From Acrocarpospora catenulata (lineage in GTDB: Bacteria > Actinomycetota > Actinomycetes > Streptosporangiales > Streptosporangiaceae), in NCBI RefSeq assembly GCF_018476525.1, contig NZ_JAHCST010000034.1, positions 1 to 64,000 on the forward strand: a DNA stretch of 64,000 bases, written 5' to 3'. Below the pieces are notes generated by a model. The model was not told the DNA's origin. It did not search any database and worked only from the letters and a program-made list of their open reading frames with translations. Numbering within the stretch: position 1 is the first letter of the stretch; each line of letters starts with the position of its first letter. Position numbers and translations under genes: made by a program. Shown piece after piece: positions 8,301 to 61,137 of the stretch.

Positions 8301-8696
8301 CAGCAGCGCGGCAACAGCGGCGTCTTCCTCCAGGAACGCTACGAGATTCAGGTCCTGGAGTCCTACGGTGACACCACGCCGGCCGCCAACGAGGCGGGCG
8401 CGATCTACTCCAAGCGCGCGCCCGACTACAACATGGCCACCGCCCCAGGAACGTGGCAGACCTACGAGATCACCTTCCGCGCGGCCCGTTACACCAGCGC
8501 GGGAGTGAAGGTCGACAACGCGCGGGTCACGGTCGTCTGGAACGGCGTGGTGGTGCACAACGACGTGGCCATCGACGGCGGCACCGGCGACAACATCCCG
8601 GAGAGTGCGGCGTCGGGCGGGATCCGCCTCCAGGACCACGGCGACCCCGGTGAGAATCCCCGCTTCCGCACCGTGTGGATCGAACCCGTCTCCTGA
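5355..8696 (+). CDS. Secreted PA14 / beta-propeller / CBM6x2 / DUF1080 protein
   Basis: A 1113-residue exported protein. ATG 5355 is chosen because a Sec signal peptide begins there (MRKLPLLSVLLLTALSW, cleavage after AQARA); the longer frame from 5280 adds 25 residues that disrupt it. Modules in order: PA14-like domain (about 33-175); sorbosone/PQQ-dehydrogenase-like six-bladed propeller (about 205-560) with RTPNGLGWGPEGDLFVMDNQG; a beta-sandwich linker; two CBM6/CBM35 domains (about 662-790 and 793-915), each opening with an EAE(S/N)AS segment and ending GDTG-VNLD; and a 3-keto-disaccharide hydrolase/DUF1080 jelly roll (about 920-1112) with RGNSGVFLQERYEIQVLES. It probably binds and processes oxidised sugars outside the cell. 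A 12-bp stem terminator follows. Confidence 0.88.
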   Translation: MRKLPLLSVLLLTALSWLVVPAQARAAVPPQEPGVTLRTYDVQVELSKLCTLKPGQTPNVDKLMPAIDWTSDADFGLTDMFVTEVIGNISIAAAGTYEFRLTSDDGSRLRIDDTVVITNEGRHGAIAVDGTITLTTGYHALRIDHFEHLYGQRLKLEWKPPGSSAFTLVPNSVLSTDADVVRVTAPGRKECESGADSPGDGLPLDSVHPDFTLTDLRPDGFQPQVTAMDWLPDDRLAIATWGGSETKLGEVYLLGNVTGNTSPAQVTIKKIASGLQEPMGIKYVDGKLYVSEKSRLVELNDTNGDEVADNLRTVATWPFGGNFHEFAFGLLYRDGHFYINLSVAINYGGATTDPQPARDRGTTIKVNKATGAVEYIAGGLRTPNGLGWGPEGDLFVMDNQGGWLPASKLVHIKKDRFFNHYTNPDGPFDDNPVSAPVLWLPHNEIANSPSTPLVMKRGRFAGQMLFGDVTYGGIQRAYLEKVNGEYQGAVFRFTQGLEAGVNRISLGPDGAIYAGGLGAGGNWGQPGKLTYGLQKLTPGDDKAFDILKMRAIEGGFELEYTQPLSAETATSLAARYQATQWRYAAASTYGGPKVDEEPLTITSAKATAGGKKVTLKIAGLKPGRVVHLRSPRPFSSASGQPLWSTEAWYTLNSMVDGPATDTTYEAESASHSGGAKLNTDHLSYSGSGFVDGYWSAGAATQFAVRAAEAGTYHVGLRYSNGPHPAPGTKSLSVYVNGTKVRQVPLPTTETWDLWATRVEPLVLQAGANTIAYKYDSGDTGNVNLDSITVAARPVLEAENASLRGGANVSTNHQGYTGTGFVDGYTAAGASTTFTVRTDSPGMHNVGLRYAAGAGTSVSVYVNGDKVRQVRLAGTGGSDAWAVQTEALSLKRGANRIEYRYDSGDTGQVNLDHITVSKAQRITLFDGSSLAAWEKRAGGSATWPIANGSMESYGGDIRTRQTFGDFKLHVEWYVPDYPPDVTGQQRGNSGVFLQERYEIQVLESYGDTTPAANEAGAIYSKRAPDYNMATAPGTWQTYEITFRAARYTSAGVKVDNARVTVVWNGVVVHNDVAIDGGTGDNIPESAASGGIRLQDHGDPGENPRFRTVWIEPVS

Positions 8697-8704
8697 CCTC
8701 ATCC

Positions 8705-8750
8705 GCCCGGCAGGCCGTCCCGCCCTCTGCGGGTGGCCGGCCTGCCGGGC
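8705..8750. terminator. Strong hairpin terminator
   Basis: GCCCGGCAGGCC (8705-8716) and GGCCTGCCGGGC (8739-8750) form a perfect 12-bp stem with an internal CCCGC/GCGGG hairpin. It lies 9 bp after the preceding stop codon and before the chitinase promoter. Confidence 0.75.
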
Positions 8751-8811
8751 CATGAGCGCGCCCCTTGGGTCTTTACCTCTCGTCTGCCTGGGTCTACGCT
8801 CCGAACTGTTA

Positions 8812-8832
8812 GGAAACTTTCCTTTTAGAAAG
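8812..8832. promoter_or_regulatory. Overlapping palindromes in chitinase upstream region
   Basis: GGAAA-C-TTTCC (8812-8822) overlaps a second dyad CTTTC-N6-GAAAG (8817-8832). They lie 10-30 bp before the chitinase start, so they look like an operator. They do not match the DasR-type palindrome known for streptomycete chitin genes. Confidence 0.5.
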
Positions 8833-8841
8833 GTTCCCCAC

Positions 8842-11400: not shown

Positions 11401-11487
11401 TGCGACGTGGCCTCTTCCAGGCTTAGCTGGTACGTCGACGGGCGTACCGTTCGCCACCGAGCGTCGAGCTAACGGCCAAGTCGAAAA

Positions 11488-11521
11488 AAGGCCCCGGGTC
11501 CCAGGGCGGATTCGGGGCCTT
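11488..11521. terminator. Bidirectional intrinsic terminator
   Basis: AAGGCCCCG (11488-11496) pairs with CGGGGCCTT (11513-11521). A run of six A on the left side gives a U tract on the minus-strand transcript. It separates the chitinase from the convergent SDR relic and should stop both. Confidence 0.75.
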
Positions 11522-11636
11522 CCGCGTCCCGTCTGCCATCGGCTGGTGAACGGTGCGGGAGACGGTGGGCGCATCATCGTCCATCCGGCCGGGCGGGAGC
11601 GGCGCTCGGTCCTGGGCCGAGCTGCGGTGATGGACC

Positions 11637-33732: not shown

Positions 33733-34523
33733 TACGCCCCCTCCTAGGCTCGTGGACGGTTGGTTGGTCAGGAGCGAGGCGCAGCGACGTCGATGTCTTC
33801 AAGAATCCCGATCGCTCCGAAACCAGGGGCGCCGCTGAATACCAGACGGAACATTACGTCCGGGTCATTGATTTGCATTTCGTGCAATTCCCGGCATGTT
33901 CACAGACGGAAGGTGACGATTTTGCACCCAGCCCCCACGACTCCCTAGCATTTCTGCTGGAAAAAGAAATATGCACTGCCCCACAAGCGTTGCTGCATTT
34001 CTTGCCTGTCGCGCACAATTTCGGCTGCGCTCCTCAATGATAAAGGCGCCCCCATGCCCGCGCAATGGCCTTTCTTTGCGTATCATATTCGCACCGATAT
34101 GCCGACATTGCCCTTCAATTATCGACAATAACCTTATGTGGAAACATGTCGGTGGGGCGGGCCAGGGCATGTCGACCGCGGCAAGGACGGCTTGGCGGCA
34201 CCAGAGGCGCACGTAGAGGCGCACGTGCGGTCACGATCGTCATCGCAGGCTCCCTGGACCACATCGACGAGCAAAGCCGACGCCTGGGGCCCGGCCAGGT
34301 AGGCCATCGGCGCGGGCGGGAGGATCACCTGAGCCTTCCTGTGGGCGCGCGAAGCGAGCGCGAGGCCGCCGTCCGAGGGTGCGCGGGCAATGGCGACCTC
34401 TCCCAGGGAAGGCCAGGACCTGGCATTTCTTTGCCGGGACATGAGATCCGAGATGCGGTTCCTCCGTATTCTGGGCGGAGGATGCAGAAAGCTCACTGTG
34501 CGGAAGTCTTTGGAGTGAGCCGG
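33733..34523. other. Long AT-richer intergenic region
   Basis: No coding sequence recognised. Part of it (about 33820-34150) is visibly less GC-rich than its surroundings and lies upstream of the divergent MIB and GAF genes, so it probably carries both promoters. A perfect 12-bp tandem duplication AGAGGCGCACGT occurs at 34203-34226. Confidence 0.6.
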
Positions 34524-35417
34524 ATGGCAGATGGCTGGGACGACGGGGGAGGGCCCGACGAGAAGCTCGTGGAGCTGTTCCTGGACGGGAAGGCCACGGA
34601 GAACGACGTACGCGCCGCGATCCTGCATTCGTGGCGGCGGTGCCAGGAGGCGGGACTGACGCCCGGCACGGTGCAGGCGCGCCTGCTCGGTGATCTTGAT
34701 TTCGACTGTGGGGTGGTCCGCGCGGCCCGGCCCGTGTTCGAGCGGCTGCGTACCGTCGTCGCGGGCACCTCGGTGAGCATGTTCCTGGGCGATGCGAGTG
34801 GGGTGATGTTCCTGCGCAACGAGGGCGAACCGGCCCTTGGCCGGGCTCTGGACGCGGTCGGCGCCGCGCCCGGGTTCCGCTTCTCCGAGGCGGACATGGG
34901 CACCAACGCCTTCGGCTCGGCGCTGGTGGAACGGCGAATCTGCCAGGTCACCGGCAGTGAGCACTTCGCGGAGGAACTGCGCGGGTTCACCGGCATGGCC
35001 GCACCGATACGCCATCCGCTCAGCGGGCGGGTGGACGGGGTCATCAGCGTCGTCGGCCCGAACGACACGGCCAACGCGGAGATGATGATCCTGGCCCAGC
35101 GATCGGCCGCCGCCGTGGAGCGGCGCCTGTTCGAAATGGCGGCCGAACACGAGCGGGCCCTGATGGAGGAGTTCCTCCGGACGCCAGACGGAGGCGTCGC
35201 GACAGCACCTATGGACCTGTGTCGCCGTGATCGGCTCGCCTTGGAGGACGCCGCCGTGCGGCTGGTCGCCCAGGGCCGGGCGGCGGTGGTCAAGATGGCC
35301 CTCTCGGATGGCCGCACCGCCACGCTCGTGGCCCAGCCGATCATCGGTTCCACCGCCATCGCGGTCAGGGCGTCGCTCAGCGACGGCCAGGAGACCCGGC
35401 CGAACGGGCGAGGATGA
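34524..35417 (+). CDS. GAF domain protein, AcoR N-terminal-like
   Basis: A 297-residue protein resembling the signal-sensing N-terminus of AcoR/NifA-type activators: AILHSWRRCQEAGLTP, then a GAF domain (FERLRTVVAGTSVSMFLGDASGVMFLRNEG ... SEADMGTNAFGSALVERRICQVTGSEHFAEELRGFTGMAAPIRHPLSGRVDGVISVVGP) and a coiled coil. The AAA+ and Fis domains of true sigma-54 activators are missing. The C-terminal ~90 residues resemble a small beta-rich domain (RLALEDAAVRLVAQGRAAVVKM ... ATLVAQPI). ATG 34524 follows GGAG. The gene overlaps the histidine kinase by ATGA, so they are made together and probably work together. Confidence 0.78.
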   Translation: MADGWDDGGGPDEKLVELFLDGKATENDVRAAILHSWRRCQEAGLTPGTVQARLLGDLDFDCGVVRAARPVFERLRTVVAGTSVSMFLGDASGVMFLRNEGEPALGRALDAVGAAPGFRFSEADMGTNAFGSALVERRICQVTGSEHFAEELRGFTGMAAPIRHPLSGRVDGVISVVGPNDTANAEMMILAQRSAAAVERRLFEMAAEHERALMEEFLRTPDGGVATAPMDLCRRDRLALEDAAVRLVAQGRAAVVKMALSDGRTATLVAQPIIGSTAIAVRASLSDGQETRPNGRG

Positions 35418-36781: not shown

Positions 36782-37576
36782 TCAAGGACCCGGCGACGCT
36801 TGCCCCTTGCGTGAGGGGAACTCGGGCGGTCGGCGGGCCGCGAAGGCCGCCAGGCCCTCGCGGGCGTCGGGCGAGGTGAACGCCCGCTGCCCGTAGAGCG
36901 CCTCGGCGTGGAACGCCTGGTCGAGCGGGAGGTCGCCCAGGCGCAGAACGGCCTCCTTGATCGTCGCGACCGCGGTGCCGGACAGCTCGCCGATCCGGCG
37001 GGCCCACGCGAGCGCCGTCGGCATCACCTCCTGCGCCGGTACGACGGCGTTGAGCAGCCCCAGCCGCAGCGCTTCGGCGGCCGGGACGCGCTCGCCGAGC
37101 AACAGCAACCGCATGGCCCAGGCGTACGGGATCTGCCGGGTCAGCCGGGCGAGCGTGCCTCCGGCCGGCACCACTCCGACACCCGGCTCGGGGAGGCCGA
37201 ACTCGGCGTGCTCGCTCGCGACCCGCAGGTCGGTGGAGAGCATGATCTCGAACCCGCCGCCCAGGCACAGGCCGTTGACCGCGGCGATCACCGGCTTGAA
37301 CAGGCTGGTGTGCTTCTGGTGCGCGCCGTCCCAGCGGGAGATGTCGAACCGGCCCTCGGCCAGCGCGGGGATCGACTCGCTCAGGTCCGCGCCGACGCAG
37401 AACGCGCGTTCGCCCTCGCCGGTGAGGACGGCCGCGGCGATCGTGTCGTCGTCCCGCACCCGGACGAAGGCGTCGGCGAGTTCGTCGTACATGGCCAGGG
37501 TCAGCGCGTTGAGCTTGGCGGGACGGGCGAAGGAGATGATGGCCGTGGACCCGTCCCGCGCGAAGCCGATGGTCAA
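36782..37576 (-). CDS. Enoyl-CoA hydratase/isomerase family protein
   Basis: A 264-residue crotonase-fold enzyme: ISFARPAKLNALTLAMYDELADAF, an oxyanion hole from FCVGADLSE and AAVNGLCLGGGFEIMLSTDLRVAS, and the second acid in AEFGLPEPGVGVVPAGGTLARL. Both glutamates expected in hydratases (GGGFE and LPEPG) are present. It starts with TTG directly after the CoA-transferase stop codon (TGA TTG), so it is translationally coupled and last in the five-gene operon. In context it may hydrate or dehydrate a branched acyl-CoA such as 3-methylglutaconyl-CoA/HMG-CoA. Confidence 0.85.
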   Translation of the reverse strand: MTIGFARDGSTAIISFARPAKLNALTLAMYDELADAFVRVRDDDTIAAAVLTGEGERAFCVGADLSESIPALAEGRFDISRWDGAHQKHTSLFKPVIAAVNGLCLGGGFEIMLSTDLRVASEHAEFGLPEPGVGVVPAGGTLARLTRQIPYAWAMRLLLLGERVPAAEALRLGLLNAVVPAQEVMPTALAWARRIGELSGTAVATIKEAVLRLGDLPLDQAFHAEALYGQRAFTSPDAREGLAAFAARRPPEFPSRKGQASPGP

Positions 37577-38827
37577 TCAGATCACCCCCGCGGCGCGGAG
37601 CTCGGCGATCCGCTGCGGGGAGAGGTCCAGCAGGCCCCGCAGTACGGCGTCGGTGTGCTCGCCGGGGCGCGGGGCGAGCGTACGCGGCCGGGCGGGGGTG
37701 ACGTCGAGCTTGATCGGCTGGCCGAACATCCGCAACGGCCCGAAGTCCGGGTACTCGACGTCGACGATCATGTCGCGGGCGGCGATCTGTGGATCGTCCA
37801 CCACTTCCGCGATGTTCCTGACCGCGCTCAGCGGCACCTGGTCGCCGGCCAGTTCTTCGAGTTCGGCGCGGGTGCGTGACGCGAACCAGTCGAGCAGAAG
37901 CGGACGGATCCGGTTGGAGTAGACATCGGGGTCGAACCGCTTGGCCATGGTGTCGATCTCCGGGTCACCGGCGAGTTCGGGACGGTCGAACATCGTGCAC
38001 GTCAGCCGCCAGAACTTGTCGGTGTAGCCACCGAAGAAGACGTACCCGTCCTTGCACGGATACAGCTCGTACGGCCGGACGAACGGATGCTGGTTGCCCA
38101 GCGGCCTGGGCACCTCGCCGTTCACCGTGTACGACACGACCGCGTTCTCGGTCAGCGACAGCACCGAGTCCTGCTGCGACACGTCGACGAGCTGGCCCTC
38201 ACCGGCACGTTCGGCGTGCCGCAGCGCGGCCAGGGTGCCGATGACGGCGTACAGGGTGGCCGACAGGTCGCCGATGATCGTGCCGACCCGGACCGGGGGC
38301 CGGTCGGCGTAGCCGTTCATCGACCACAGGCCGCCGGTGGCCTGCGCGGAGTTGTCGTAGGCCGGCCTGCTCCGGTACGGCCCGGTCTGGCCGAAGCCGG
38401 AGATGGCGGTGTAGACCAGACGGGGGTTCTCCGCGCGCAGGACGGCGGGCCCCACGCCGAGCTTGTCCATGGTGCCCGGCCGGAAGTTCTCCACCAGCAC
38501 GTCGGCGCGGCGCACGAGCTGCTTGAGCAGGTCTTGCCCGTCGGGCGTCGCCAGGTCGAGGGTGAGCCCGAGCTTGCCGCGGTTGTACTGAGCGAAGAAC
38601 GCGCTGAACGTGCTCCCGTCGGCGGCCGCCAGGTGAGGGGGGAAGTCGCGGGCGTAGTCCGGGTCGCTCGGCCGCTCGACCTTGATCACCGTCGCGCCGA
38701 GGTCGGCGAGGATCATCGAGCAGAACGGGCCCGCGACCACCCGGGTGATGTCCAGCACCACGACTCCGGCGAGGGGCCCGCGCCCCGCCGGGGCGGGGTC
38801 GTCGCCCTCCCAGGTCTCGGCGGTCAT
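37577..38827 (-). CDS. Family III CoA-transferase (CaiB/BaiF)
   Basis: A 416-residue class III CoA-transferase: PLAGVVVLDITRVVAGPFCSMILADLGATVIKVERPSDPDYARDFPP, NRGKLGLTLDLATPDGQDLLKQLVRRADVLVENFRPGTMDKLGVGPAVL with the catalytic Asp in GTMDKLG, AISGFGQTGPYRSRPAYDNSAQATGGL, and the C-terminal RRPGEHTDAVLRGLL-type end. It moves CoA between carboxylic acids. It overlaps the hydantoinase B gene by 4 bp and lies within the HMG-CoA reductase operon, where it could activate an acid with CoA taken from a pathway thioester. Confidence 0.9.
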   Translation of the reverse strand: MTAETWEGDDPAPAGRGPLAGVVVLDITRVVAGPFCSMILADLGATVIKVERPSDPDYARDFPPHLAAADGSTFSAFFAQYNRGKLGLTLDLATPDGQDLLKQLVRRADVLVENFRPGTMDKLGVGPAVLRAENPRLVYTAISGFGQTGPYRSRPAYDNSAQATGGLWSMNGYADRPPVRVGTIIGDLSATLYAVIGTLAALRHAERAGEGQLVDVSQQDSVLSLTENAVVSYTVNGEVPRPLGNQHPFVRPYELYPCKDGYVFFGGYTDKFWRLTCTMFDRPELAGDPEIDTMAKRFDPDVYSNRIRPLLLDWFASRTRAELEELAGDQVPLSAVRNIAEVVDDPQIAARDMIVDVEYPDFGPLRMFGQPIKLDVTPARPRTLAPRPGEHTDAVLRGLLDLSPQRIAELRAAGVI

Positions 38828-40977
38828 CGGGCGCCCACCTCCACGCGGACTCTGGTTTCCAGCAGGGTGCCACAGGATGGACTGACGAACTCCTCCAGCA
38901 GGACGGCGGGCTCTCCGGACCGGGGCCGGATCCGCACGCCGAGTTCGGCGAGGCGTTCAGCGGCGGGACGGGTCCGGATCAGAGCGTCGTCACGCCAGTC
39001 GTCGGCGGTGCTGATCAGGGCGCCGCTGGCCGGGCAGTACCAGTGGCCGTCCCGTCCCCGGTGCGGGACGGAGGCTCCGGCGACGCCGATCATCGTGTCC
39101 GGGACCGTCGCCGCGGGGGGTGTGCCGCCGAGCCGTTCCGCGCGGAGCGCGGCCCTGCGCCCGGCGGTCGCGGCGAGGTCGGCCTGGTCGCCGTCGAGCA
39201 CCACGCCGTAGACGCGCTCGGCCACGGCCGCGGTCACGTAGCCGTCGCCGACGTCCCGCGCGACCCGCGCCGGGTCGCGCAGCAGGGGGTCGCCGTAGCC
39301 GCCGCCCCCGGCGATCCACTGGACGAAGACGTCGCCGCGCCGGACGGTGAGGTCGTACTGGTTGATGTCCAGCAACTGCCTGGTGGCCGCGGTGAGGTTC
39401 TCCTCGGTGGGGACGGCGCCGCCGGACATGAGCTGCCACACGTCGGTGTCGCGGCACAGCAGGTGGCCGCTGCCGCCGCCGGGCAGGCCGCCCCCGTAGC
39501 CGTCGGCGGGCACCTGGGCGCTGGGGGCGAACACGGTCTGTGTCACCTCGCTCGCGCCGTGCAGGGTCCAGGCGAACTCGTGGCCGAGGCCGCCCCGGTT
39601 CGCGCCGTGGCCCGCGCTGGCGGGGGAGAGCCGCTTCCACAGGTAGAGCACCGGGTAGAGCATCTCGTTCATCTCCACGTCCGGCAGCATGTTGTTCATC
39701 TGCGTCATCATTCCGGCGCAGTCCAGGCCGTCGGCCTCGGGCTGGGCGCCGGCCCCCATGCCGCCGCCGTCCATGTTGAACAGCACGAAGTACTCGCCGT
39801 CGTCACGGGTTCCGGCCGAGATCCCGCCCGTCCAGGAGTCGGCCCAGACGCCCTGCGTACGCTCCCGGAGCACGGGGTCGTCACTGGCCCGGCACGGCTC
39901 GTTGAACAGCTTGGTGATCAGTCTGCTCACCCGGGCCCCGGTGGTGAGGTGGCCGTTGCTGATCGGCGCCGGCGGGCGCGGGTTGACGATGCTCCCCGGC
40001 TCGGCGATCACCTCGAAGGCCGTCATGACGCCCTCGTTGAACGGCACGTCCCACGCCAGGATCGGCACGACGGCGGTGGCGACGCTGCCCACCAGAGCCC
40101 CGTAGCTGCAGTTGACGAACCCGTCGGTCTGCGGGCTGGACCCCGTGAAGTCCAGCGTGACCTGGTCGCCGCGCTTGGTCAGCGTGCATCGGACCCGGTA
40201 GAGATCGTCAGTGTGCCCGTTGTGCTCGGTCCACTCCTCCGCCTCCCAAACGCCGTCGGGCAGCCGGGCCAGCCGGTCGCGTACGACCTGCTCGGCGATC
40301 TCGAAGTTGCGCCGCGTGTACGCCCGGAAACGGTCGAGCCCGAACTCCGCGATCGTGGCGAGCAGCCGGCGGATGCCGGTGTTGTTGCTCGCCACCAGGC
40401 TGCGCACGTCGTTCCAGTACGGCACGGGGACCCGGACGTTGTTGAGCAGGATCCGCCGGACCCACTCGACCGGCTCGCCCCGCTCGAAGACCTTGACCCC
40501 GGGCGGCAGTCGCAGCGCCTCGCTGTAGCAGTCGTACGCGCCGGGCGCGAAGCCGCCGGGGGTCATGCCCCCGACGTCGAGCAGATGCGCCTGCGACTGC
40601 GCCCAGCCGATCAGCTGCTCGCCGTGGAAGATCGGGGAGATCACGTTGGTGTCCGGCGGGTGGCTCGCCCCCGCGGTGTGCGGGTCGTTGCAGATGAACG
40701 CGTCCCCCGGATACAGCGGCTCGCCCCGGATGACCTCGACGAGGTTGCGGACGGCGACGCTGCCCGACCCGATGTGGAACTGCACGTAGTCCGAGTACGC
40801 GTAGATACGTCCCTCGGGATCGAAGAGCGCGGTGTTGAAGTCACCGGCCTCGGTGATGACGGGCGATCCGGAGGACCGGATCATCGCGATGCCCATCTCC
40901 TCAACGATCGAGTCGAGGCGCATCCTGATCACTTCCAGCGTGACCGGGTCGAAGTCGTCGGATGTCGGTGAGCTCAC
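38824..40977 (-). CDS. Hydantoinase B/oxoprolinase family subunit
   Basis: A 717-residue HyuB-type protein: FDPVTLEVIRMRLDSIVEEMGIAMIRSSGSPVITEAGDFNTALFDPEGRIYAYSDYVQFHIGSG opens the family, then ICNDPHTAGASHPPDTNVISPIF with the metal-site His residues, and the C-terminal GGGYGDPLLRDPARVARDV. It normally pairs with HyuA in ATP-dependent opening of cyclic amides (5-oxoproline, hydantoins) or carboxylation of ketones (acetone carboxylase). GTG start with AAGGAG in a 15-bp gap after hyuA. The C-terminal ~130 residues look like an extra domain beyond the core. Confidence 0.9.
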   Translation of the reverse strand: MSSPTSDDFDPVTLEVIRMRLDSIVEEMGIAMIRSSGSPVITEAGDFNTALFDPEGRIYAYSDYVQFHIGSGSVAVRNLVEVIRGEPLYPGDAFICNDPHTAGASHPPDTNVISPIFHGEQLIGWAQSQAHLLDVGGMTPGGFAPGAYDCYSEALRLPPGVKVFERGEPVEWVRRILLNNVRVPVPYWNDVRSLVASNNTGIRRLLATIAEFGLDRFRAYTRRNFEIAEQVVRDRLARLPDGVWEAEEWTEHNGHTDDLYRVRCTLTKRGDQVTLDFTGSSPQTDGFVNCSYGALVGSVATAVVPILAWDVPFNEGVMTAFEVIAEPGSIVNPRPPAPISNGHLTTGARVSRLITKLFNEPCRASDDPVLRERTQGVWADSWTGGISAGTRDDGEYFVLFNMDGGGMGAGAQPEADGLDCAGMMTQMNNMLPDVEMNEMLYPVLYLWKRLSPASAGHGANRGGLGHEFAWTLHGASEVTQTVFAPSAQVPADGYGGGLPGGGSGHLLCRDTDVWQLMSGGAVPTEENLTAATRQLLDINQYDLTVRRGDVFVQWIAGGGGYGDPLLRDPARVARDVGDGYVTAAVAERVYGVVLDGDQADLAATAGRRAALRAERLGGTPPAATVPDTMIGVAGASVPHRGRDGHWYCPASGALISTADDWRDDALIRTRPAAERLAELGVRIRPRSGEPAVLLEEFVSPSCGTLLETRVRVEVGAR

Positions 40978-40992
40978 GGGGGTCTCCTTCGA

Positions 40993-43056
40993 TCAGGCGG
41001 CGTCGCCGGCGTGGTTCAGGCGGATGAGGAAGTGCCCGCCGTCGATGACCTCGACCGCCGCGGCCGGCGGCACGTAGACGGTGGTGTCGGGCTCCTCGAT
41101 CAGGCACGGGCCCTCGGCCTTGCCGAGCGCGCCGAACCCCCGGTGCACCTCGACGCGGCGGCGGTGGCCGGACAGCGGCTCGACGACCTCCCGCGTGGTG
41201 GCGGTGTGCCGCTCCTGGCCGGGGGTCTCGGTCACGGTCTGGGTCTCGGTGCGGCCGACCGCCCGTACCCGCGAGTTGACCAGCAGCACCTCGGCCTCGG
41301 TCCACGCGGTGCCGGTGCCGAACTCGGCCTCGTAGTCCGCCACGAACCGGCGGCGCAGCGTCTCCTTGTCGCCTTCCCGGAACGGCTCCTCGGGCAGGCG
41401 TGTGGTCACCTCGAAGATCTGGCCGACGAACTTCATGTCGGCCTCGCGGAAGATCGCGCGGCGGTCCTGGGGGATGCCCTCGGCGTCGAACCAGTCGCGC
41501 GCCCGCTGTTCCAGGGCGGCGAACTCCCGCTCCAGCGTCTCGGCCGGCTGGTCCATCGTCCACGGGCTGGTCTGGACCGCGGAGAAGACCGAGTCGGCGT
41601 GCATGAGCCCGTACGCCGAGAACACGGCGGCGTTGCGCGGGATGATCACCTCGCCTACTCCCGTCTCGGCGGCGATCGCGGCGGCGAACAGCCCGCAGGC
41701 GCCGCCGAAGCCGACCAGGGTGAACTCACGGGGATCGTGCCCGCGGTTGACGGTGATCTTGCGTAGCGCGTTGGCCATCTGCGAGGTCGCCAGCCGGTAC
41801 ATGCCGTGCGCGGCGGCGTCCTCGGACAGCCCGAGCGGGTCGGCGAGGTGCCGCCGGATCGCCTCGCGCGCCTTGCCCGGCGACAGGGTGACCGTCCCGC
41901 CCAGGTAGTACTCGGGGTTGATCAGCCCCATGACCAGCGCGGCGTCGGTCACGGCCGGACGCTCGCCGCCCTTGCCGTAGCAGGCGGGCCCTGGCACGGA
42001 ACCGGCGCTGTGCGGGCCGACGCGCAGCACCCCGCGGCCGTCGATCCAGCCCAGGCTGCCGCCCCCGGCGCCGATGGTCTCGATGTCCACCGCGGTGAGG
42101 CTGGTGGGCAGCCCGCCGATCTCGGCGCGCGGCAGCACCCGCAGCTCGTCGTCGATGATCGCGGCGGCGTCCAGGCTGGTACCGCCCATGTCGGCGGTGA
42201 GCACCCGGCGCCGGCGCAGCCGCATGCCGAGCAGGCGCGCGCCGGTCACCCCGCCGACCGGGCCGGAGTTGAACATCGAGATCGGCGCCCGCGCGGTCTC
42301 CTCGACCGAGAGGAACCCGCCGTGGACCTGCATGATCTGCACTCTGGTGCGCAGCCCCCTGGCGGCCAGGGCGTCGGCGAGCTGCTGGAAGTGGGTCGCG
42401 ACGATCGGCTTGACCGCCGCGTCCAGCGCCGTCGTCACCATGCGCTCGTACTCCCGGTACACCGGCGTCAGCGCGCTGGACAGCGAGTAGGGCACGTCCG
42501 GGTGGTGTTCACGCAGATGATCGGCGATCGCCCGCTCGTGCGCGTCGTTGCGGAAGGACCACAGCAGGCACACCGCGATCGACTCGGCGCCGGCCGCCAG
42601 CACCTGCTCCACGCTCCTGCGCACGGCCTCCGGTGACAGCGGCACCAGCACGGTGCCGTGCGCGTCGACGCGTTCGGGCACCTCGACGATCAGACGCCGG
42701 TCCACGATGTCCGGCGGCGGCGCCAGCAGGTGCGAGTCGCGCTCGTCGGTACGCGCGGAGCGGGCGATCCGCAGTGTGTCCCGGAAGCCCTGGGTGGTCA
42801 GCAGCCCCACCCGGGCGTACTTCTGCTCGTCCACCGCGTTGGTGACGATGGTGTTGCCGAGCACGAACCGGTCGATCGCCGGATAGAACTCCGCCTCGCT
42901 CAGCCCGACCTGCTCGCGCAGGATGCTCAGCGCGGCGAGGATGCCGGTGGTCACATCCGGCGTCGAGAACGCCTTGCCGCGCACGGCGCGGCCGTCGGCG
43001 ATGGCGACGGCGTCGGTGAAGGTGCCCCCGACGTCGATGCCCACGTCCAAAACCAT
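40993..43056 (-). CDS. Hydantoinase A/oxoprolinase family subunit
   Basis: A 687-residue HyuA-type ATPase of the acetate/sugar-kinase/Hsp70 fold: LDVGIDVGGTFTDAVAI (phosphate loop), VLGNTIVTNAVDEQKYARVGLLTTQGFRD, NSGPVGGVTGARLLG, LTADMGGTSLDAAAI (second phosphate motif), TIGAGGGSLGWID, and GACGLFAAAIAAETGVGEVIIPRNAAVFSAYGLMHAD. It uses ATP to phosphorylate the substrate carbonyl for its HyuB partner. ATG 43056 has GGAGG inside the end of the HMG-CoA reductase gene, 6 bp away. The substrate of this pair is not known; context suggests a mevalonate-derived acid, lactone or ketone. Confidence 0.9.
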   Translation of the reverse strand: MVLDVGIDVGGTFTDAVAIADGRAVRGKAFSTPDVTTGILAALSILREQVGLSEAEFYPAIDRFVLGNTIVTNAVDEQKYARVGLLTTQGFRDTLRIARSARTDERDSHLLAPPPDIVDRRLIVEVPERVDAHGTVLVPLSPEAVRRSVEQVLAAGAESIAVCLLWSFRNDAHERAIADHLREHHPDVPYSLSSALTPVYREYERMVTTALDAAVKPIVATHFQQLADALAARGLRTRVQIMQVHGGFLSVEETARAPISMFNSGPVGGVTGARLLGMRLRRRRVLTADMGGTSLDAAAIIDDELRVLPRAEIGGLPTSLTAVDIETIGAGGGSLGWIDGRGVLRVGPHSAGSVPGPACYGKGGERPAVTDAALVMGLINPEYYLGGTVTLSPGKAREAIRRHLADPLGLSEDAAAHGMYRLATSQMANALRKITVNRGHDPREFTLVGFGGACGLFAAAIAAETGVGEVIIPRNAAVFSAYGLMHADSVFSAVQTSPWTMDQPAETLEREFAALEQRARDWFDAEGIPQDRRAIFREADMKFVGQIFEVTTRLPEEPFREGDKETLRRRFVADYEAEFGTGTAWTEAEVLLVNSRVRAVGRTETQTVTETPGQERHTATTREVVEPLSGHRRRVEVHRGFGALGKAEGPCLIEEPDTTVYVPPAAAVEVIDGGHFLIRLNHAGDAA

Positions 43057-43062
43057 GGCTGC

Positions 43063-44355
43063 TCAGCCTCCTTCTACTGCACCGGCTCCGGCACGGAGCT
43101 CGGCCAGGATCTGCTCGGCACGGTCGGCGCGTACCGCCTTGGCGGCGAGCATGCGCGCGACCACCGTGGGAATCTCCTCGGGGCTCGCGCCCGCGGTCAC
43201 CGCCACGTTGCGCGCGTGCAGTGACATGTGTCCGCGCTGGATGCCCTCGGTGGCCAGGGCCCGCAGCGCGGCGAGGTTCTGCGCGAGCCCGACTGCGGCG
43301 ACGATGCCGGCCAGCTCGCTCGCGGTCCGCACCCCCAGCAGCCGCACCGCCGCGCGCGCCACCGGGTGCACCTTCGTGGCCCCACCGACCAGGCCGACCG
43401 CCATGGGCAGTTCCAGCGAGCCGGACAGGTTGCCCTCGGCGTCGCGCTCGAAGTGGGACAGGGAGGTGTAGCGGCCGTCCGGGGCGACCGCGTGGGAGTG
43501 CGCGCCCGCCTCGACCGCGCGGGTGTCGTTGCCCGTCGCCAGCACCACGGCGGTGACGCCGTTCATGATGCCCTTGTTGTGCGTCGCCGCCCGGTACGGA
43601 TCGGCCTCGGCCAGCGCCGCCGCGTGCACGATGTCCCGCACCACCTGCGCGCCCCCGAGGGCCTCGGCGTCGAAGACGGCGCGGGCCCTGGCCAGGCGCA
43701 GGTCCGCCTTGTTGGTCAGGATCCGCAGCAGGGTACGGCCTCCGGCGATCTCACCCACCCGGGCCGCCACGGCCTCCGCCATCGTGTTCACCGCGTTGGC
43801 GCCCATCGCGTCCCGCACGTCGACCACGAGGTGGAGCACGACGTAGACGTCCTCGCCCGACGGCACGAGCCGTACGGTGATGTCCCGTACGCCGCCGCCG
43901 AACTCCACCAGGCGCGGGTCCTGCGCGTTCGCCAGCTCGGCGAGCTCGCCGCGCGCCTCCAGCAACCGCAGCCGCGCCGCGTGGGGGTCGGCCGCGCCCA
44001 GCACCTGCACCTGCGCCTGCATGATCGGCGCCGAGCACGTCGTGGCGAAGCCGCCGTGGATGCGGGCGATGCGCGCGGCGTTGCTCGCCGCGGCGACCAC
44101 CGACGGCTCCTCCGTCGCCATCGGCACCAGGACGTCGGATCCGTTGACCCTGAAGTTCGTGGCCACGCCTACTGGCACGCCGAGGACCCCGACCACGTTC
44201 TCGATCATGTGGTCGGCCTGGTCCAGGGTGAGCCCGGCGGCCGGATCGAGTACGTCGAGCGCGCCGGGATCGAGCCCCGCGCTCTTCGCGGCGAGGGCCC
44301 GCCGCTCTCCGGGCGACAGGTCACGCAACCCCGTCAGCCGGCTGTGAACACCCAC
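43063..44355 (-). CDS. mvaA: Class II (degradative) HMG-CoA reductase
   Basis: A 430-residue class II HMG-CoA reductase of the Pseudomonas mevalonii type. Key features are the acid in VPMATEEPSVVAAASNAARI, the dinucleotide site VVDVRDAMGANAVNTMAEAV, the lysine in YRAATHNKGIMNGVTAVVLATGNDTRAVEAGAHSHA, LELPMAVGLVGGATKVHPVA, and the catalytic His in GIQRGHMSLHARNVA. The class II enzyme interconverts mevalonate and HMG-CoA, in catabolic species in the oxidative direction with NAD+. GTG 44355 follows GGGAGG and gives the family N-terminus (HSRLTGLRDLSPGERR). It is the first gene of a five-gene operon behind a PucR-type regulator. ispE in this window shows that mevalonate is not needed for isoprenoid synthesis. 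Confidence 0.95.
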   Translation of the reverse strand: MGVHSRLTGLRDLSPGERRALAAKSAGLDPGALDVLDPAAGLTLDQADHMIENVVGVLGVPVGVATNFRVNGSDVLVPMATEEPSVVAAASNAARIARIHGGFATTCSAPIMQAQVQVLGAADPHAARLRLLEARGELAELANAQDPRLVEFGGGVRDITVRLVPSGEDVYVVLHLVVDVRDAMGANAVNTMAEAVAARVGEIAGGRTLLRILTNKADLRLARARAVFDAEALGGAQVVRDIVHAAALAEADPYRAATHNKGIMNGVTAVVLATGNDTRAVEAGAHSHAVAPDGRYTSLSHFERDAEGNLSGSLELPMAVGLVGGATKVHPVARAAVRLLGVRTASELAGIVAAVGLAQNLAALRALATEGIQRGHMSLHARNVAVTAGASPEEIPTVVARMLAAKAVRADRAEQILAELRAGAGAVEGG

Positions 44356-44447
44356 GATGCCTCCCGCATACCGCCGAAACAGGCTGATAACCGAGCCGAA
44401 ACGCAAACGGCTTGTCCGGAAGGTTAGGTCTGAGCGGAACGCCGCGC

Positions 44448-44493
44448 CCATGGGTGAATCACACGCCGTTGATGCCACTGCCATGTGTGAATC
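44448..44493. promoter_or_regulatory. Twin direct repeat upstream of mvaA operon
   Basis: CCATGGGTGAATC (44448-44460) and CCATGTGTGAATC (44481-44493) match at 12 of 13 bases and are 33 bp apart, about three helical turns. They lie in the 146 bp between the regulator stop and the mvaA start, so they are a strong candidate operator. Confidence 0.75.
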
Positions 44494-44501
44494 GACGTAG
44501 A

Positions 44502-46481
44502 TCACAGACCGGTCGCGAGGGCGTGCATACGTACGGCCACGGTGACGCGGAAGAACGGCTCCGGCTCGCGCCACGCGGGGCCGAGTAGCAGGGTGATCCT
44601 GTCCAGGCGCTGGTTGACCGTGTTGATGTGCACGTTCAGCGCTCGCGCCGCCCGCGCCGGGCCGCAGTGCGAGTCGACGTAGGTGCGCAACGTCTTCACC
44701 AGGTCGGTCGAATGATCGCGGTCCCAGCGCAGCACCGGCCCGAGCACCGCCTGGGTGAACGCGACGATCCCGTCGCGTCCTGCGCCGAACAGGGCCAGGT
44801 ACGGTTGGTAGGCCGCCGCGTTGACGGCCGTGTCCTGGATGCCCATGCCGTGCAGCAGTTCGGCGCACTGGCGTAGCGGCTCGAATCGGGCGCCCAGCTC
44901 GCCCCAGGCGGCGACGGGCGCGTCGGCCACCACGAGCACCGGCGCCCCCGTCAGCGGGCGCACGCACTCGCGGACCTCGGTCGCCGCGCTGTCGGGGTCG
45001 GCCGCGTCCGTCAGCACGACCACACAGCCCGCGTGCTCACCGGCCAGCAGGCCGGGGCGCCAGGTGCCGAGCGCCTGCACCGCCGCCCTGCGCCGGTCAC
45101 GTGGCACCAGCACCGCGACGACCATGCGCAGCGACTCCAGACGGACCCCGCGGGCGCGGGCCCGCAACATCAGCTCCTCGCGGTGCGCGCCGTCGCCCAG
45201 CAGGATGTCGGAGATCAGCTCTCCGCGCACCCGCTCCTCGGCCTCGGCGACGGCCTCCCGCTTCAGCGCCAGCAGGGCCACGATCTGCGCCGCGCGCTCG
45301 ATCGTGCGCCGCTCGACCGAGCCCAGCGCGAGCTCGCCGTGGCCGACGAGGATCGCGCCGAGCAGCGTCTCGGCGGCCACCACGGCGACCACGACAGACG
45401 CTCCGTCATCCGACGGGCCCAGGAACACGCACCGCCCCGTGGTACGGCTGCGCTCGACCGCGGCGCGTACGTGCGCGGTCACGGGCGAGGGCTCCCGCGA
45501 GGCGTCGGTCCGCGCCGAGGGCTCCCGCGAGGTATCGGTCCGCGCCGAGGATTCTCGCGAGGCGTCGGTTCGCGCAGAGGCGAGTGGGGCCAGGTCGCGG
45601 TCGAAGATCTCCACCGACCGTCCCAGTGAGGCGGCCAGTGTCCGGGCCACCTCGTGCGCGGTGCCCCCGCGCAGCACCGCATTGGTGAGGTCCTGATGCA
45701 CCGCGCTGGCGCGTTCCCTCGCCGCCATGGTGCGTGCGAGATCCTCGTTGGCCGCCCGTGCCGCCTCGGCCGACGCGCGGGCCTGTGCCAGCAGGTGCAC
45801 CGTCTGCAAGACCACGGCCGCGTGGTCGGCGAACGCCGACAGCAGGGCGATCTCCTCGGGCGTGAACGCGTGCTCGTCGCGATTGGCCGCGAACAGCACC
45901 CCCAGCACCCGGTCGCCCGCCACCAGCGGCACACCGAGCAGCGACACCAGCCCCTCGGCCCGTACGGCCTCGTCGATCTCCGCGTCATGCGGGACGTCGA
46001 GATAGTGGTCGTAGTTCGTCGTCCACTGCGGGCTGCGCGTAGACACGACCTTGCCGGCCAGGCCCTTTCCCGGAGGCACCCGAAGCCGGCGGAACGCGGG
46101 CGCGAACGTGCCCAGCGTCGAGCGCACCCGCAACTCATCGGTCTCCTGGTCGAACTCCGACAGATACGTCACGTCGGTGCCCACCAGGCCATGCGCCCGG
46201 GCCACCAGGCGGTCAAGCAGCGCGTCCAGATCGCGTAGTTCGGCCAGCTCACGCGCGCTGGACAGCAACGCGGACAGCTCCTGATCGCGCCGGCGCCACC
46301 GTGCCAGCGCCGCCCGCACCTGCCGCGTCCGCCGCAGCACGCTGTTCAGTTCGGCGCCGTCGAGCGACTCGGCGAGCGGCGCGACGGCGCGCTGCTCGTC
46401 GGCCGTCTCATCGAGCAGCAGGTCCAGCAGCCCGAGCACCGACTCCAGAGGGACCAGCGCCCGCTGCGCGGGCAATGCCAT
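44502..46481 (-). CDS. GAF-containing PucR/CdaR-type transcriptional regulator
   Basis: A 659-residue regulator. A helical N-terminus (ESVLGLLDLLLDETADEQRAVAPL ... LARWRRRDQELSALLSSARELAEL) leads to a GAF domain (about 90-240: VGTDVTYLSEFDQETDELRVRSTLGTF ... VSLLGVPLVAGDRVLGVLFAANR). A coiled coil and second sensory/GGDEF-like region follow, then the PucR C-terminal helix-turn-helix (VKTLRTYVDSHCGPARAARALNVHINTVNQRLDRI). An unusual linker contains three tandem 10-residue repeats (45487-45576). ATG 46481 is preferred; a GTG 27 bp upstream is possible. It lies directly upstream of the mvaA operon and probably controls it. Confidence 0.88.
   Translation of the reverse strand: MALPAQRALVPLESVLGLLDLLLDETADEQRAVAPLAESLDGAELNSVLRRTRQVRAALARWRRRDQELSALLSSARELAELRDLDALLDRLVARAHGLVGTDVTYLSEFDQETDELRVRSTLGTFAPAFRRLRVPPGKGLAGKVVSTRSPQWTTNYDHYLDVPHDAEIDEAVRAEGLVSLLGVPLVAGDRVLGVLFAANRDEHAFTPEEIALLSAFADHAAVVLQTVHLLAQARASAEAARAANEDLARTMAARERASAVHQDLTNAVLRGGTAHEVARTLAASLGRSVEIFDRDLAPLASARTDASRESSARTDTSREPSARTDASREPSPVTAHVRAAVERSRTTGRCVFLGPSDDGASVVVAVVAAETLLGAILVGHGELALGSVERRTIERAAQIVALLALKREAVAEAEERVRGELISDILLGDGAHREELMLRARARGVRLESLRMVVAVLVPRDRRRAAVQALGTWRPGLLAGEHAGCVVVLTDAADPDSAATEVRECVRPLTGAPVLVVADAPVAAWGELGARFEPLRQCAELLHGMGIQDTAVNAAAYQPYLALFGAGRDGIVAFTQAVLGPVLRWDRDHSTDLVKTLRTYVDSHCGPARAARALNVHINTVNQRLDRITLLLGPAWREPEPFFRVTVAVRMHALATGL
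45487..45576 (-). repeat. Three tandem 30-bp repeats inside regulator gene
   Basis: Units 45487-45516, 45517-45546 and 45547-45576 are exactly 30 bp each and nearly identical; the third has diverged most. They encode a repeated 10-residue Ser/Arg/Asp-rich linker of the form ARTDASREPS between two sensory regions. Copy number could vary without shifting the frame. Confidence 0.85.
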
Positions 46482-46570
46482 GTCCCGAGCATATGGGTCC
46501 CGTCTCACGTGCCGGAGCCAACTGGGCCGACGCGCTGATCAGGAGGATCGTCCGCATCAGGCTCCGCGGT

Positions 46571-60231: not shown

Positions 60232-61137
60232 CTAGACCAGGACGGCTCCGGGCACGGGTCCGTACGCGCCGACCACGGTGCGGCAGACGCCCGCCCCGGC
60301 CAGCGAGATCGCCAGTTCCCGCGCGTGGACCTCGGATTCGGCGAGGAAGGCACAGGTCGGCCCGGAGCCGGAGACCAGCGCGCCGAGGGCGCCGTGCTCC
60401 CGCCCGACCTCCAGGGTGCGGGCCAGACTGCGGCGGAGCATGATCGCGGCCGGTTGCAGGTCGTTGACCAGGGCACCGCCCAGCGCCTTGGCGTCGCCGT
60501 CGCGGAGCGCTTGGGCCAGCGCGGGGCTGAGCGCGGGCCAGCCGGGCCGCTGTCCGGCGGCCTCCCGCAGGCGGTCGCACTCGCCGTACACCTGGGGGGT
60601 GGACAGGCCGCCGTCGGCCAGCGCGAACACCCAGTGGAAGCGCCCGGAGACCGGAAGCGGGCTGAGCGTCTCACCCCGGCCGGTGCCCACGGCGGTGCCG
60701 CCGAGCAGCGCGAACGGCACGTCGCTGCCGAGGTCGGCGGCGATCTCCCGCAGGTCGTCCCTGGACAGCCCGAGCCCCCAGAGCCGGTCGCAGGCGACCA
60801 GCGCGGCGGCGGCGTCGGCGCTGCCCCCGGCCATGCCGCCCGCCACCGGGATGTGCTTGCGGATGACCAGGTTCGCCCCGTACGGCCGGCCGGCCCGGGC
60901 GGCGAGTGCGCGGGCGGCCCTGATGGCCAGGTTGTCGCCGTCCACCGGCACCTGCGCGGCCGAGTCGCCGACCACCCGCACGGTGAGGGTGTCCGCCTCG
61001 GACGCCGTGACCTCGTCGAAGAGCGACACGGCGTGGAAGACGTTCACCAGGTCGTGGAAGCCGTCGTCGCGGAGTGGCCCCACCGAGAGTTGCAGATTGA
61101 CCTTGGCGGGGACGCGAACGGTCACAGATGACGTCAC
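60232..61137 (-). CDS. ispE: 4-diphosphocytidyl-2-C-methyl-D-erythritol kinase
   Basis: A 301-residue GHMP kinase: VRVPAKVNLQLSVGPLRDDGFHDLVNVFHAVSLFD, the glycine-rich ATP loop HIPVAGGMAGGSADAAAALVACDRLWGL, LGSDVPFALLGGTAVGTGRGE with the catalytic Asp, and SGSGPTCAFLAE. It phosphorylates CDP-ME to CDP-MEP in the MEP isoprenoid pathway. GTG 61137 (VTSSVTVRVPAKVN) fits the family N-terminus; the longer frame to 61242 would overlap the STK promoter. It is normally next to rsmA; here two plus-strand genes separate them. Confidence 0.95.
   Translation of the reverse strand: MTSSVTVRVPAKVNLQLSVGPLRDDGFHDLVNVFHAVSLFDEVTASEADTLTVRVVGDSAAQVPVDGDNLAIRAARALAARAGRPYGANLVIRKHIPVAGGMAGGSADAAAALVACDRLWGLGLSRDDLREIAADLGSDVPFALLGGTAVGTGRGETLSPLPVSGRFHWVFALADGGLSTPQVYGECDRLREAAGQRPGWPALSPALAQALRDGDAKALGGALVNDLQPAAIMLRRSLARTLEVGREHGALGALVSGSGPTCAFLAESEVHARELAISLAGAGVCRTVVGAYGPVPGAVLV

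What the first reader, a model, noticed from the sequence alone, without database searches (positions are those of the whole stretch)
36782..46481. Candidate mevalonate/HMG-CoA catabolic operon with hydantoinase-like subunits and no HMG-CoA lyase
A class II HMG-CoA reductase heads a tightly coupled operon with hyuA, hyuB, a family III CoA-transferase and a crotonase, behind a PucR-type regulator. The same window carries ispE, so isoprenoids come from the MEP pathway and mevalonate should be a growth substrate. The known catabolic route (Pseudomonas mevalonii) uses HMG-CoA lyase, which is absent here. Inferred alternatives: HyuAB opens a mevalonate-derived ring (such as mevalonolactone) or carboxylates a ketone, and the crotonase and CoA-transferase handle 3-methylglutaconyl-CoA or HMG-CoA. 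I know of no described pathway with this gene set.
Basis: partly seen in the sequence, partly recalled or inferred. Interest (0 to 1): 0.75.

Follow-up and report, generated by a model that had tools for sequence, protein, structure and literature searches.

The report
Mevalonate-degrading operon with extra front end
A soil actinobacterium carries an operon that breaks down mevalonate by the known route, joined to a conserved set of extra enzymes that probably make the mevalonate from another compound, perhaps the acid tails of fungal iron carriers; the missing lyase sits elsewhere in its genome.

Summary
The headline 'no HMG-CoA lyase' fails: the genome has two lyases over the curated cut-off, and in the nearest relative a lyase is the next gene of the same operon. 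So the core is ordinary mevalonate breakdown; only the linked lyase copy is missing here. The new part is upstream. The CoA-transferase orthologue occurs in 13 of 297 family genomes, all with HMGR. Of 26 CoA-transferase stretches, 25 have exactly one hydratase, crotonase (18) or an unrelated FAS1/MaoC-type protein (7); the last is cut. None of 111 HMGR loci has both this CoA-transferase and a TctA transporter, though the HMGR tree needs 4-6 switches. I infer that CoA-transferase plus hydratase turns a 3-methyl-enoate, most likely anhydromevalonate, into mevalonate, and that HyuAB releases that acid from an amide or hydroxamate. HyuAB's reaction is open: its B subunit has a carboxylase-type gamma domain. 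Interest 0.5.

The parts
44502..46481 (-). regulator: GAF domain plus PucR-type HTH_30 (alternative GTG start at 46508)
   Evidence: Pfam GAF_2 71.1 bits, HTH_30 59.7 bits; a related regulator (>=150 bits) lies in the stretch of 36 of 111 HMGR loci
43063..44355 (-). class II (degradative) HMG-CoA reductase; GTG start behind GGGAGG
   Evidence: TIGR00532 411.8 bits, cut-off 259.95; residues 3-422 of P0001 aligned to 6dio (451 bits), also 6p7k and 1qax; only HMGR found in the genome
40993..43056 (-). HyuA: ASKHA-type ATP-binding subunit of the hydantoinase/ketone carboxylase superfamily
   Evidence: Pfam Hydantoinase_A 291.1 bits, Hydant_A_N 147.1; motifs DVGGTFTD, DMGGTSLD, GSVPGP seen in the translation, as named in PMC8453981
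38824..40977 (-). HyuB: metal-site subunit, fused to a gamma-like C-terminal domain
   Evidence: Pfam Hydantoinase_B 444.5 bits; Asp-His-Asp-His ligands align with those of caprolactamase CapB and are invariant in 13 of 13 aligned sequences, the window's included
38851..39051 (-). gamma-like domain of HyuB (residues 643-709)
   Evidence: Acetone_carb_G 22.1 bits, cut-off 21; only 4 of 12 orthologues match at E<=0.01; profile hits acetone and acetophenone carboxylase gamma chains weakly, E 0.034-0.11; Foldseek 5svb_F E 4.1e-3
37577..38827 (-). family III (CaiB-type) CoA-transferase
   Evidence: Pfam CoA_transf_3 418.9 bits; closest NCBIfam models succinyl-CoA:mesaconate (323.6 of 700) and succinate-glutarate (299 of 750) CoA-transferases, both below cut-off
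36782..37576 (-). crotonase-family enoyl-CoA hydratase (TTG start)
   Evidence: Pfam ECH_1 197.3 bits; both hydratase glutamates (GGGFE, PE; motif recalled) are in the translation

Best explanation
The operon is a mevalonate-breakdown operon with a front end that makes the mevalonate. SHOWN by sequence: a class II HMGR of the catabolic type under a PucR-type regulator, with HMG-CoA lyase genes elsewhere in this genome (the linked copy is missing here but present in its nearest relatives), tightly coupled to HyuAB, a family III CoA-transferase and a hydratase. INFERRED, in order of confidence: (1) mevalonate + CoA + 2 NAD+ gives HMG-CoA, and the lyase gives acetyl-CoA + acetoacetate. (2) CoA-transferase and hydratase form one module that activates a 3-methyl-2-enoate and adds water at the tertiary carbon. 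The best candidate is anhydromevalonate (5-hydroxy-3-methylpent-2-enoate): the CoA-transferase moves CoA from mevalonyl-CoA onto it, the hydratase makes mevalonyl-CoA, and free mevalonate is released to HMGR, a CoA-sparing cycle like CaiB/CaiD in carnitine metabolism (recalled) and the reverse of fungal SidI/SidH. (3) HyuAB, with ATP and perhaps bicarbonate (as in caprolactamase), splits an amide or hydroxamate to release that acid; fungal hydroxamate siderophores (fusarinines, coprogen) carry it.
For: CoA-transferase orthologue (61% identity or more) in 13 of 297 family genomes, the window's own included, all 13 with HMGR, which occurs in 25 of 297 (hypergeometric P 3e-16 without correction for kinship); the two lie 67-6,454 bases apart in the 12 genomes where both are on one contig. 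Among 26 CoA-transferase stretches: crotonase in 18, an unrelated FAS1/MaoC-type protein in 7, both in none, the last cut by a contig end: non-homologous replacement, as expected for one required hydration. At the score limits set, no locus of 111 has either hydratase without the CoA-transferase. TctA transporter in 0 of 25 CoA-transferase loci and 29 of 86 others (Fisher 2e-4); among 36 loci with the PucR-type regulator 20 have CoA-transferase, 15 TctA, none both (2.9e-9; neither corrected for kinship), and the one with neither (L187) is cut by a contig end in a genome that has the CoA-transferase on another contig: where mevalonate is not imported by TctA it may be made inside. The HMGR tree needs 6 switches, 4 on well-supported branches. 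The hydratase-swapped loci bring amide/ester tools: Amidohydro_3 proteins, alpha/beta hydrolases nearest to macrolide esterases, and solute-binding proteins of the peptide/nickel family. [quoted passage not shown]
Against: Nothing here shows the substrate. No siderophore gene was seen in the window operon. The crotonase is not especially near SidH (7oeq 104.7 bits against 179.4 for its best solved relative). HyuB's gamma domain points to carboxylases: PMC5214803 says the gamma subunit is absent from any hydantoinase complex (passages). A second HyuAB copy lies away from HMGR in the nearest relative, so HyuAB need not serve this pathway only. HyuB is not found in 13 of 26 CoA-transferase stretches, two of them broken or cut. 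With kinship corrected, 4 supported independent pairs remain for the transporter contrast (opposite in 2.6 on average, no difference in 1.4, same in 0) and the sign test cannot reach 0.05. The CoA-transferase scores far below the cut-offs of all 7 models it matches. In the Rhizobium plasmid the CoA-transferase is split over two reading frames. Amidohydro_3 and alpha/beta hydrolases have many other uses.
Confidence: 0.38

Rival explanations
1. The CoA-transferase and crotonase act on a dicarboxylate: 3-methylglutaconate (the acyl group of ferrichrome A, recalled) or 3-hydroxy-3-methylglutarate is activated and, where needed, hydrated straight to HMG-CoA, and HMGR is a second, parallel entry for mevalonate. 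The lyase serves both.
For: Nearest models of the CoA-transferase act on branched or C5 dicarboxylates: mesaconate, glutarate; solved relatives include succinate--hydroxymethylglutarate CoA-transferase (9br6/9br7, 209 bits, behind three others at 227-233 bits). Hydration of 3-methylglutaconyl-CoA to HMG-CoA is a known crotonase reaction (general knowledge). HMGL is linked in 15 of 26 stretches.
Against: If it fed HMG-CoA directly, the module should also occur without HMGR, but all 13 family genomes with the CoA-transferase carry HMGR. The lack of the TctA transporter in these loci would be unexplained.
Confidence: 0.24
2. HyuAB is a biotin-free carboxylase: it adds CO2 to a C5 carbonyl compound (for instance prenal) to build the C6 skeleton, which CoA-transferase, crotonase and HMGR then turn into HMG-CoA.
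For: HyuB has a fused gamma-like domain with the four-cysteine site intact in Conexibacter and Rhodococcus; PMC5214803 ties gamma to ketone carboxylases (passages). C5 plus CO2 gives mevalonate's six carbons.
Against: On the HyuA tree acetone and acetophenone carboxylase form a clade (96) that leaves this HyuA out; HyuA is closest to N-methylhydantoinase (37% identity) among four solved relatives. Two of the four gamma cysteines are lost in the window protein. Fused gamma-like tails also occur in uncharacterised actinobacterial paralogues. No C5 substrate is indicated by the neighbours.
Confidence: 0.14
3. One reading: a lyase-free mevalonate route in which HyuAB, CoA-transferase and crotonase replace HMG-CoA lyase downstream of HMGR.
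For: No lyase in the window; 11 of 26 CoA-transferase stretches show no linked lyase, one of them cut. G146, with a full HyuAB operon and no linked lyase, has only one lyase-like match (44% identity), whose function I did not check.
Against: Two lyases in this genome; the nearest relatives carry the lyase in the same operon; 13 of 23 CoA-transferase loci on the HMGR tree keep a linked lyase and the trait changes 6 times, as for a gene that can be supplied in trans.
Confidence: 0.05
4. Two independent pathways share one regulator: HMGR for mevalonate, and HyuAB/CoA-transferase/crotonase for an unrelated acid or cyclic amide.
For: HyuAB also occurs without these partners (L119); gene order and strand differ between loci, several with HMGR and HyuAB on opposite strands.
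Against: The CoA-transferase was found in no family genome without HMGR (13 of 13).
Confidence: 0.12

Closest known systems
Pseudomonas mevalonii mevalonate catabolism (mvaA HMGR + mvaB HMG-CoA lyase; recalled)
   Same: Class II degradative HMGR aligned over 3-420 to 1qax; HMG-CoA lyase in the genome and in the operon of sister genomes.
   Different: Lyase not linked in this genome; operon with HyuAB, CoA-transferase and crotonase; PucR-type regulator; no TctA transporter in the window.
CaiB/CaiD carnitine pathway (CoA-transferase plus crotonase-type hydratase; recalled)
   Same: Family III CoA-transferase followed at once by a crotonase, expected to activate an enoate and hydrate it.
   Different: CoA-transferase only distantly related to solved CaiB (1xk6 104.5 bits); product would be mevalonate, not carnitine.
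Fungal SidI/SidH siderophore branch (mevalonate to anhydromevalonyl-CoA; PMC3709128, passages)
   Same: Proposed reaction is the same chemistry run backwards; SidH also matches the crotonase by sequence (7oeq).
   Different: Bacterial, catabolic, CoA-transferase instead of a ligase; no close sequence kinship to SidH.
ATP-dependent caprolactamase CapAB / N-methylhydantoinase / ketone carboxylases (PMC8453981 and PMC5214803, passages)
   Same: ATP motifs and Asp-His-Asp-His metal site kept; HyuA 30-37% identical to the two hydrolases.
   Different: HyuB fused to a gamma-like domain; HyuA outside the carboxylase clade; below all equivalog cut-offs.

Membership tests
Degradative (class II) HMG-CoA reductase | Score over the curated model TIGR00532 | tested here: met
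   411.8 against 259.95 bits
Degradative (class II) HMG-CoA reductase | NAD+ use and oxidation of mevalonate | not testable with these tools
   The GGGxRD aspartate (NAD-type, recalled) aligns; no assay
mvaA/mvaB mevalonate catabolism | HMG-CoA lyase in the genome | tested here: met
   Two over cut-off: C13 392.2 and C154 387.9 of 246 bits
mvaA/mvaB mevalonate catabolism | Lyase linked to HMGR | tested here: not met
   None in the window; linked in sister genome G106 and, with the CoA-transferase, in G127
Hydantoinase/oxoprolinase (Hyd) branch | ATP motifs in A and Asp-His-Asp-His metal site in B | tested here: met
   Motifs in the translation; aligned residues; metal site invariant in 13 of 13 aligned HyuB
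Hydantoinase/oxoprolinase (Hyd) branch | No gamma subunit (criterion of PMC5214803) | tested here: not met
   Fused gamma-like domain, partly degenerate: two of four cysteines
Ketone carboxylase (Acx/Apc) branch | A subunit groups with Acx/Apc | tested here: inconclusive
   Acx+Apc clade (96) excludes it, but beyond its sister paralogue (92) the window lineage's deep branches have support of 26-82 only
Caprolactamase | Curated NF050156/NF050157 | tested here: not met
   473.7 and 235.4 against 1000 bits each
Family III CoA-transferase | Pfam CoA_transf_3 | tested here: met
   418.9 bits against 23.3
Succinyl-CoA:mesaconate or succinate-glutarate CoA-transferase | Curated equivalog cut-off | tested here: not met
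   323.6 of 700 and 299 of 750 bits
3-Methylglutaconyl-CoA hydratase | Activity on 3-methylglutaconyl-CoA | not testable with these tools
   General crotonase matches only; the 25 shown of 73 are all below their cut-offs

The most novel reading that the evidence does not exclude
This is a pathway by which soil actinobacteria eat fungal hydroxamate siderophores. Esterase, peptide/metallophore-type uptake and amidases (or the ATP-driven HyuAB) release anhydromevalonate; a CoA-transferase/hydratase cycle re-makes mevalonate, and HMGR plus lyase burn it. HyuAB would then be a new kind of ATP-dependent hydroxamate hydrolase with a vestigial carboxylase gamma domain.
Probability: 0.22. Interest if true: 0.78.

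Novelty: new variant of a known kind. Interest (0 to 1): 0.5.

Why it matters
Degradative-type HMGRs occur in many bacteria, and what mevalonate source they serve in nature is not known to me. A conserved front end that was never found together with the TctA transporter suggests that, in these bacteria, mevalonate is an intermediate made from something else. If that is anhydromevalonate, it gives a testable carbon route from fungal siderophores into bacteria, a function for one branch of a large HyuAB family, and a CoA-sparing CoA-transferase/hydratase cycle outside carnitine metabolism.

Tried and rejected
Lyase-free route: rejected. HyuAB as a mevalonolactone opener: no support; two Streptomyces loci have a separate SMP-30-type protein. 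Biosynthetic mevalonate pathway: no mevalonate kinase over cut-off and ispE present. Filing HyuAB as hydantoinase or as ketone carboxylase: each fails or cannot be settled on one tested feature. Phylum-wide survey: 0 of 395 other genomes had the CoA-transferase at E <= 1e-110, so it gave no further contexts. Whole-HyuB model: mean pLDDT 64.3, 12 sequences; its PDB hits do not tell hydrolase from carboxylase. Literature: ten searches; in the listings shown I saw no bacterial pathway with this gene set and no bacterial catabolism of anhydromevalonate; several listings were cut to the first 12-20 papers and subscription papers are mostly not held, so this is weak. Passages of six papers were read, none in full.

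Limits of the counts. Only the best 80 of 587 relatives were kept. The first HyuA tree run used wrong frames for three paralogues and failed on a thread setting; one search replaces it. In one search, L174 (same as L036) and L045 (same as L115) were dropped and L123 (no HMGR, contig end) was not given. L126 (Burkholderia cenocepacia) was left out by oversight; checked afterwards it has HMGR and TctA and no CoA-transferase match, so it fits. L013 was counted as CoA-transferase-bearing although only a 108-bit fragment is there, probably an assembly join. Of the 57 loci with neither gene, many on short contigs, only 8 were put in the tree. In one search, L013 and L186 were left out of the HyuAB and lyase counts.
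Full report
WHAT IS THERE. The six genes are real and lie as described, all on the minus strand: regulator 44502-46481, HMGR 43063-44355, HyuA 40993-43056, HyuB 38824-40977, CoA-transferase 37577-38827, crotonase 36782-37576. Gaps from HMGR to crotonase are 6, 15, -4 and 0 bases. HMGR passes the curated degradative model (411.8 against 259.95 bits), is the only HMGR found in the genome, and aligns nearly end to end with solved class II enzymes (6dio 451 bits, 6p7k 432.5, 1qax 431.3). ispE is at 60319-61125, and no mevalonate kinase passes its cut-off, so mevalonate is probably not an isoprenoid precursor here.

THE LYASE IS NOT MISSING. The genome holds two HMG-CoA lyases over the NF004283 cut-off of 246 bits: C13 (392.2) and C154 (387.9). 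By my reading of the translations, the C154 copy sits in a leucine-type cluster with a biotin-dependent carboxylase and an acyl-CoA dehydrogenase (no family scan was run on those neighbours). In the same-genus genome G106 the operon reads regulator-HMGR-HyuA-HyuB-CoA-transferase-crotonase-lyase, with 92-98% identity to the window in the first six genes and the lyase frame overlapping the crotonase's end. G127 also has that lyase beside the CoA-transferase. Both relatives have in addition a lyase 69% identical to the operon copy, as does the window genome at C154; its C13 copy is 65% identical. So the window strain has lost, or never had, only the linked copy. In its place, 33 bases after the crotonase, ends a convergent histidine kinase gene. 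One result goes the other way: G146, with a full HyuAB operon, shows no linked lyase and only one lyase-like match of 44% identity, which I did not classify.

HOW CONSERVED IS THE SET. A scan with HMGR found 587 relatives and kept the best 80. Of these 80 loci, 6 carry HMGR, regulator, HyuA, HyuB, CoA-transferase and crotonase within the stretch (Streptomyces A108, Sciscionella, Brevibacterium 239c, Conexibacter, S. olivaceus, Amycolatopsis rubida), and 11 have the CoA-transferase, one as a fragment. A plasmid of Rhodococcus pseudokoreensis has the six genes plus lyase. A Rhizobium plasmid has HMGR, CoA-transferase, crotonase and lyase, but its CoA-transferase is split over two reading frames. 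These were the only 2 plasmid records with the CoA-transferase at E <= 1e-100. Among 297 genomes of the window's family, its own included, HMGR is in 25, the CoA-transferase (61% identity or more) in 13 and HyuB (75% or more, with split copies in G127) in 6; all 13 CoA-transferase genomes have HMGR, and all 6 HyuB genomes have both. The chance figure is 3e-16 without correction for kinship. In a 396-genome phylum sample only the window genome has the CoA-transferase at E <= 1e-110, so the set is rare.

THE MODULE. I compared 26 stretches with the CoA-transferase, one holding only a fragment of it. 18 have the crotonase; 7 have instead an unrelated protein of the FAS1-dehydratase/MaoC type (PF13452, 30.6 bits in the one scanned); none has both; the last is cut by a contig end. 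HMG-CoA lyase is linked in 15 of 26 and HyuB in 13 of 26, all of the crotonase kind. TctA is in 0 of 26. Over 111 HMGR loci, 25 have the CoA-transferase, 29 have TctA, none has both, 57 have neither, and no locus has either hydratase, at the score limits set, without the CoA-transferase. Among the 36 loci with the PucR-type regulator, 20 have the CoA-transferase and 15 TctA; the one with neither (L187) ends at a contig edge and belongs to G127, which has the CoA-transferase on another contig. On an HMGR tree of 62 rows (25 CoA-transferase, 29 TctA, 8 of the 57 others) the switch between the two kinds needs 6 changes, 4 forced by well-supported branches. With kinship corrected only 4 supported independent pairs remain: the two traits go opposite ways in 2.6 on average, do not differ in 1.4 and never go the same way, and the sign test has no power (median p 0.25).

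READING. An exchangeable hydratase paired with a CoA-transferase and found next to HMGR, in loci that lack the TctA transporter, points to a module that makes HMGR's substrate inside the cell. The acid that gives mevalonate on CoA activation and hydration is anhydromevalonate. The fungal enzymes SidI and SidH make anhydromevalonyl-CoA from mevalonate for fusarinine-type and coprogen-type siderophores (PMC3709128, passages); the module here would run that chemistry backwards. Loci with the swapped hydratase add Amidohydro_3 proteins (in 3 of 7 at the limit set, a fourth just below it), alpha/beta hydrolases (4 of 7) and solute-binding proteins of family 5 (4 of 7). The three alpha/beta hydrolases scanned have macrolide esterases as best models (131.9-160.2 bits, below the cut-off of 420). 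The one solute-binding protein scanned matches NikA best (135.8 bits) and also the staphylopine-binding CntA (90.3), again below cut-off. That would suit cyclic ester and hydroxamate siderophores but is indirect. The substrate is inference, not result.

HYUAB. The ATP motifs and the Asp-His-Asp-His metal site named in PMC8453981 (passages) are kept, the metal site in 13 of 13 aligned sequences, so it is probably active. HyuA is nearest to N-methylhydantoinase (37% identity; 28.5-32% to the other three solved relatives) and lies outside the acetone plus acetophenone carboxylase clade (96), but beyond its sister paralogue (92) its deep branches have support of 26-82. HyuB carries a gamma-like domain (model of that domain mean pLDDT 89.2). 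The four cysteines of the site are intact in Conexibacter and Rhodococcus and reduced to two or one in the other 11 of 13 sequences. PMC5214803 uses a gamma subunit as a mark of carboxylases (passages), yet other actinobacterial paralogues of unknown function have such a tail too. I lean to hydrolase, because amidases take the matching place in other loci, but hold this loosely; three loci have both HyuAB and an Amidohydro_3 protein (L002, L006, L016).

VERDICT.

Noticed in passing
L119 (G106:C34), 6897-11176: A second HyuAB copy, 91-93% identical to the operon copy, stands away from HMGR in the nearest relative beside GAF/DhaR-like regulators that by eye resemble the window ORF at 34065-35417; a like copy appears split over contigs in G127.
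   Followed up: partly
L113 (Rhodococcus pseudokoreensis plasmid NZ_CP070614.1), 8964-19889: The complete set including lyase sits on a 469-kb linear plasmid from apple rhizosphere (typed non-mobilizable), so the set may move between hosts.
   Followed up: no
L002 11309-12439 and L016 11399-12334: SMP-30/gluconolactonase-type proteins lie near HMGR in two Streptomyces; they might open mevalonolactone or anhydromevalonolactone (Pfam on L002 only).
   Followed up: no
L127 (Salinigranum marinum plasmid), 9001-11618: A haloarchaeal degradative HMGR overlaps a gene annotated as acyclic terpene utilisation AtuA family, an apparently different HMGR context.
   Followed up: no
L010 1334-3316 and L114 16380-18350: Two proteobacterial CoA-transferase loci share a pyridoxamine-oxidase-like, NAD-binding, 2Fe-2S protein; it could be a reductase for the same substrate.
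   Followed up: no
L036 16687-18885 and L173: Two loci with the swapped hydratase carry a distant HyuA-like protein (84-90 bits; in L036 Hydant_A_N 122.5 bits behind a 200-residue extension); no HyuB of the window type is in the stretch.
   Followed up: partly
L013 9744-10972: In a Pseudonocardia MAG a CoA-transferase fragment abuts an HMGR fragment directly, probably an assembly join.
   Followed up: no
L114 (Rhizobium plasmid NZ_CP104990.1), 11221-12413: The CoA-transferase reads in two frames: a frameshift or a sequencing error; not listed as a gene in the record table.
   Followed up: partly
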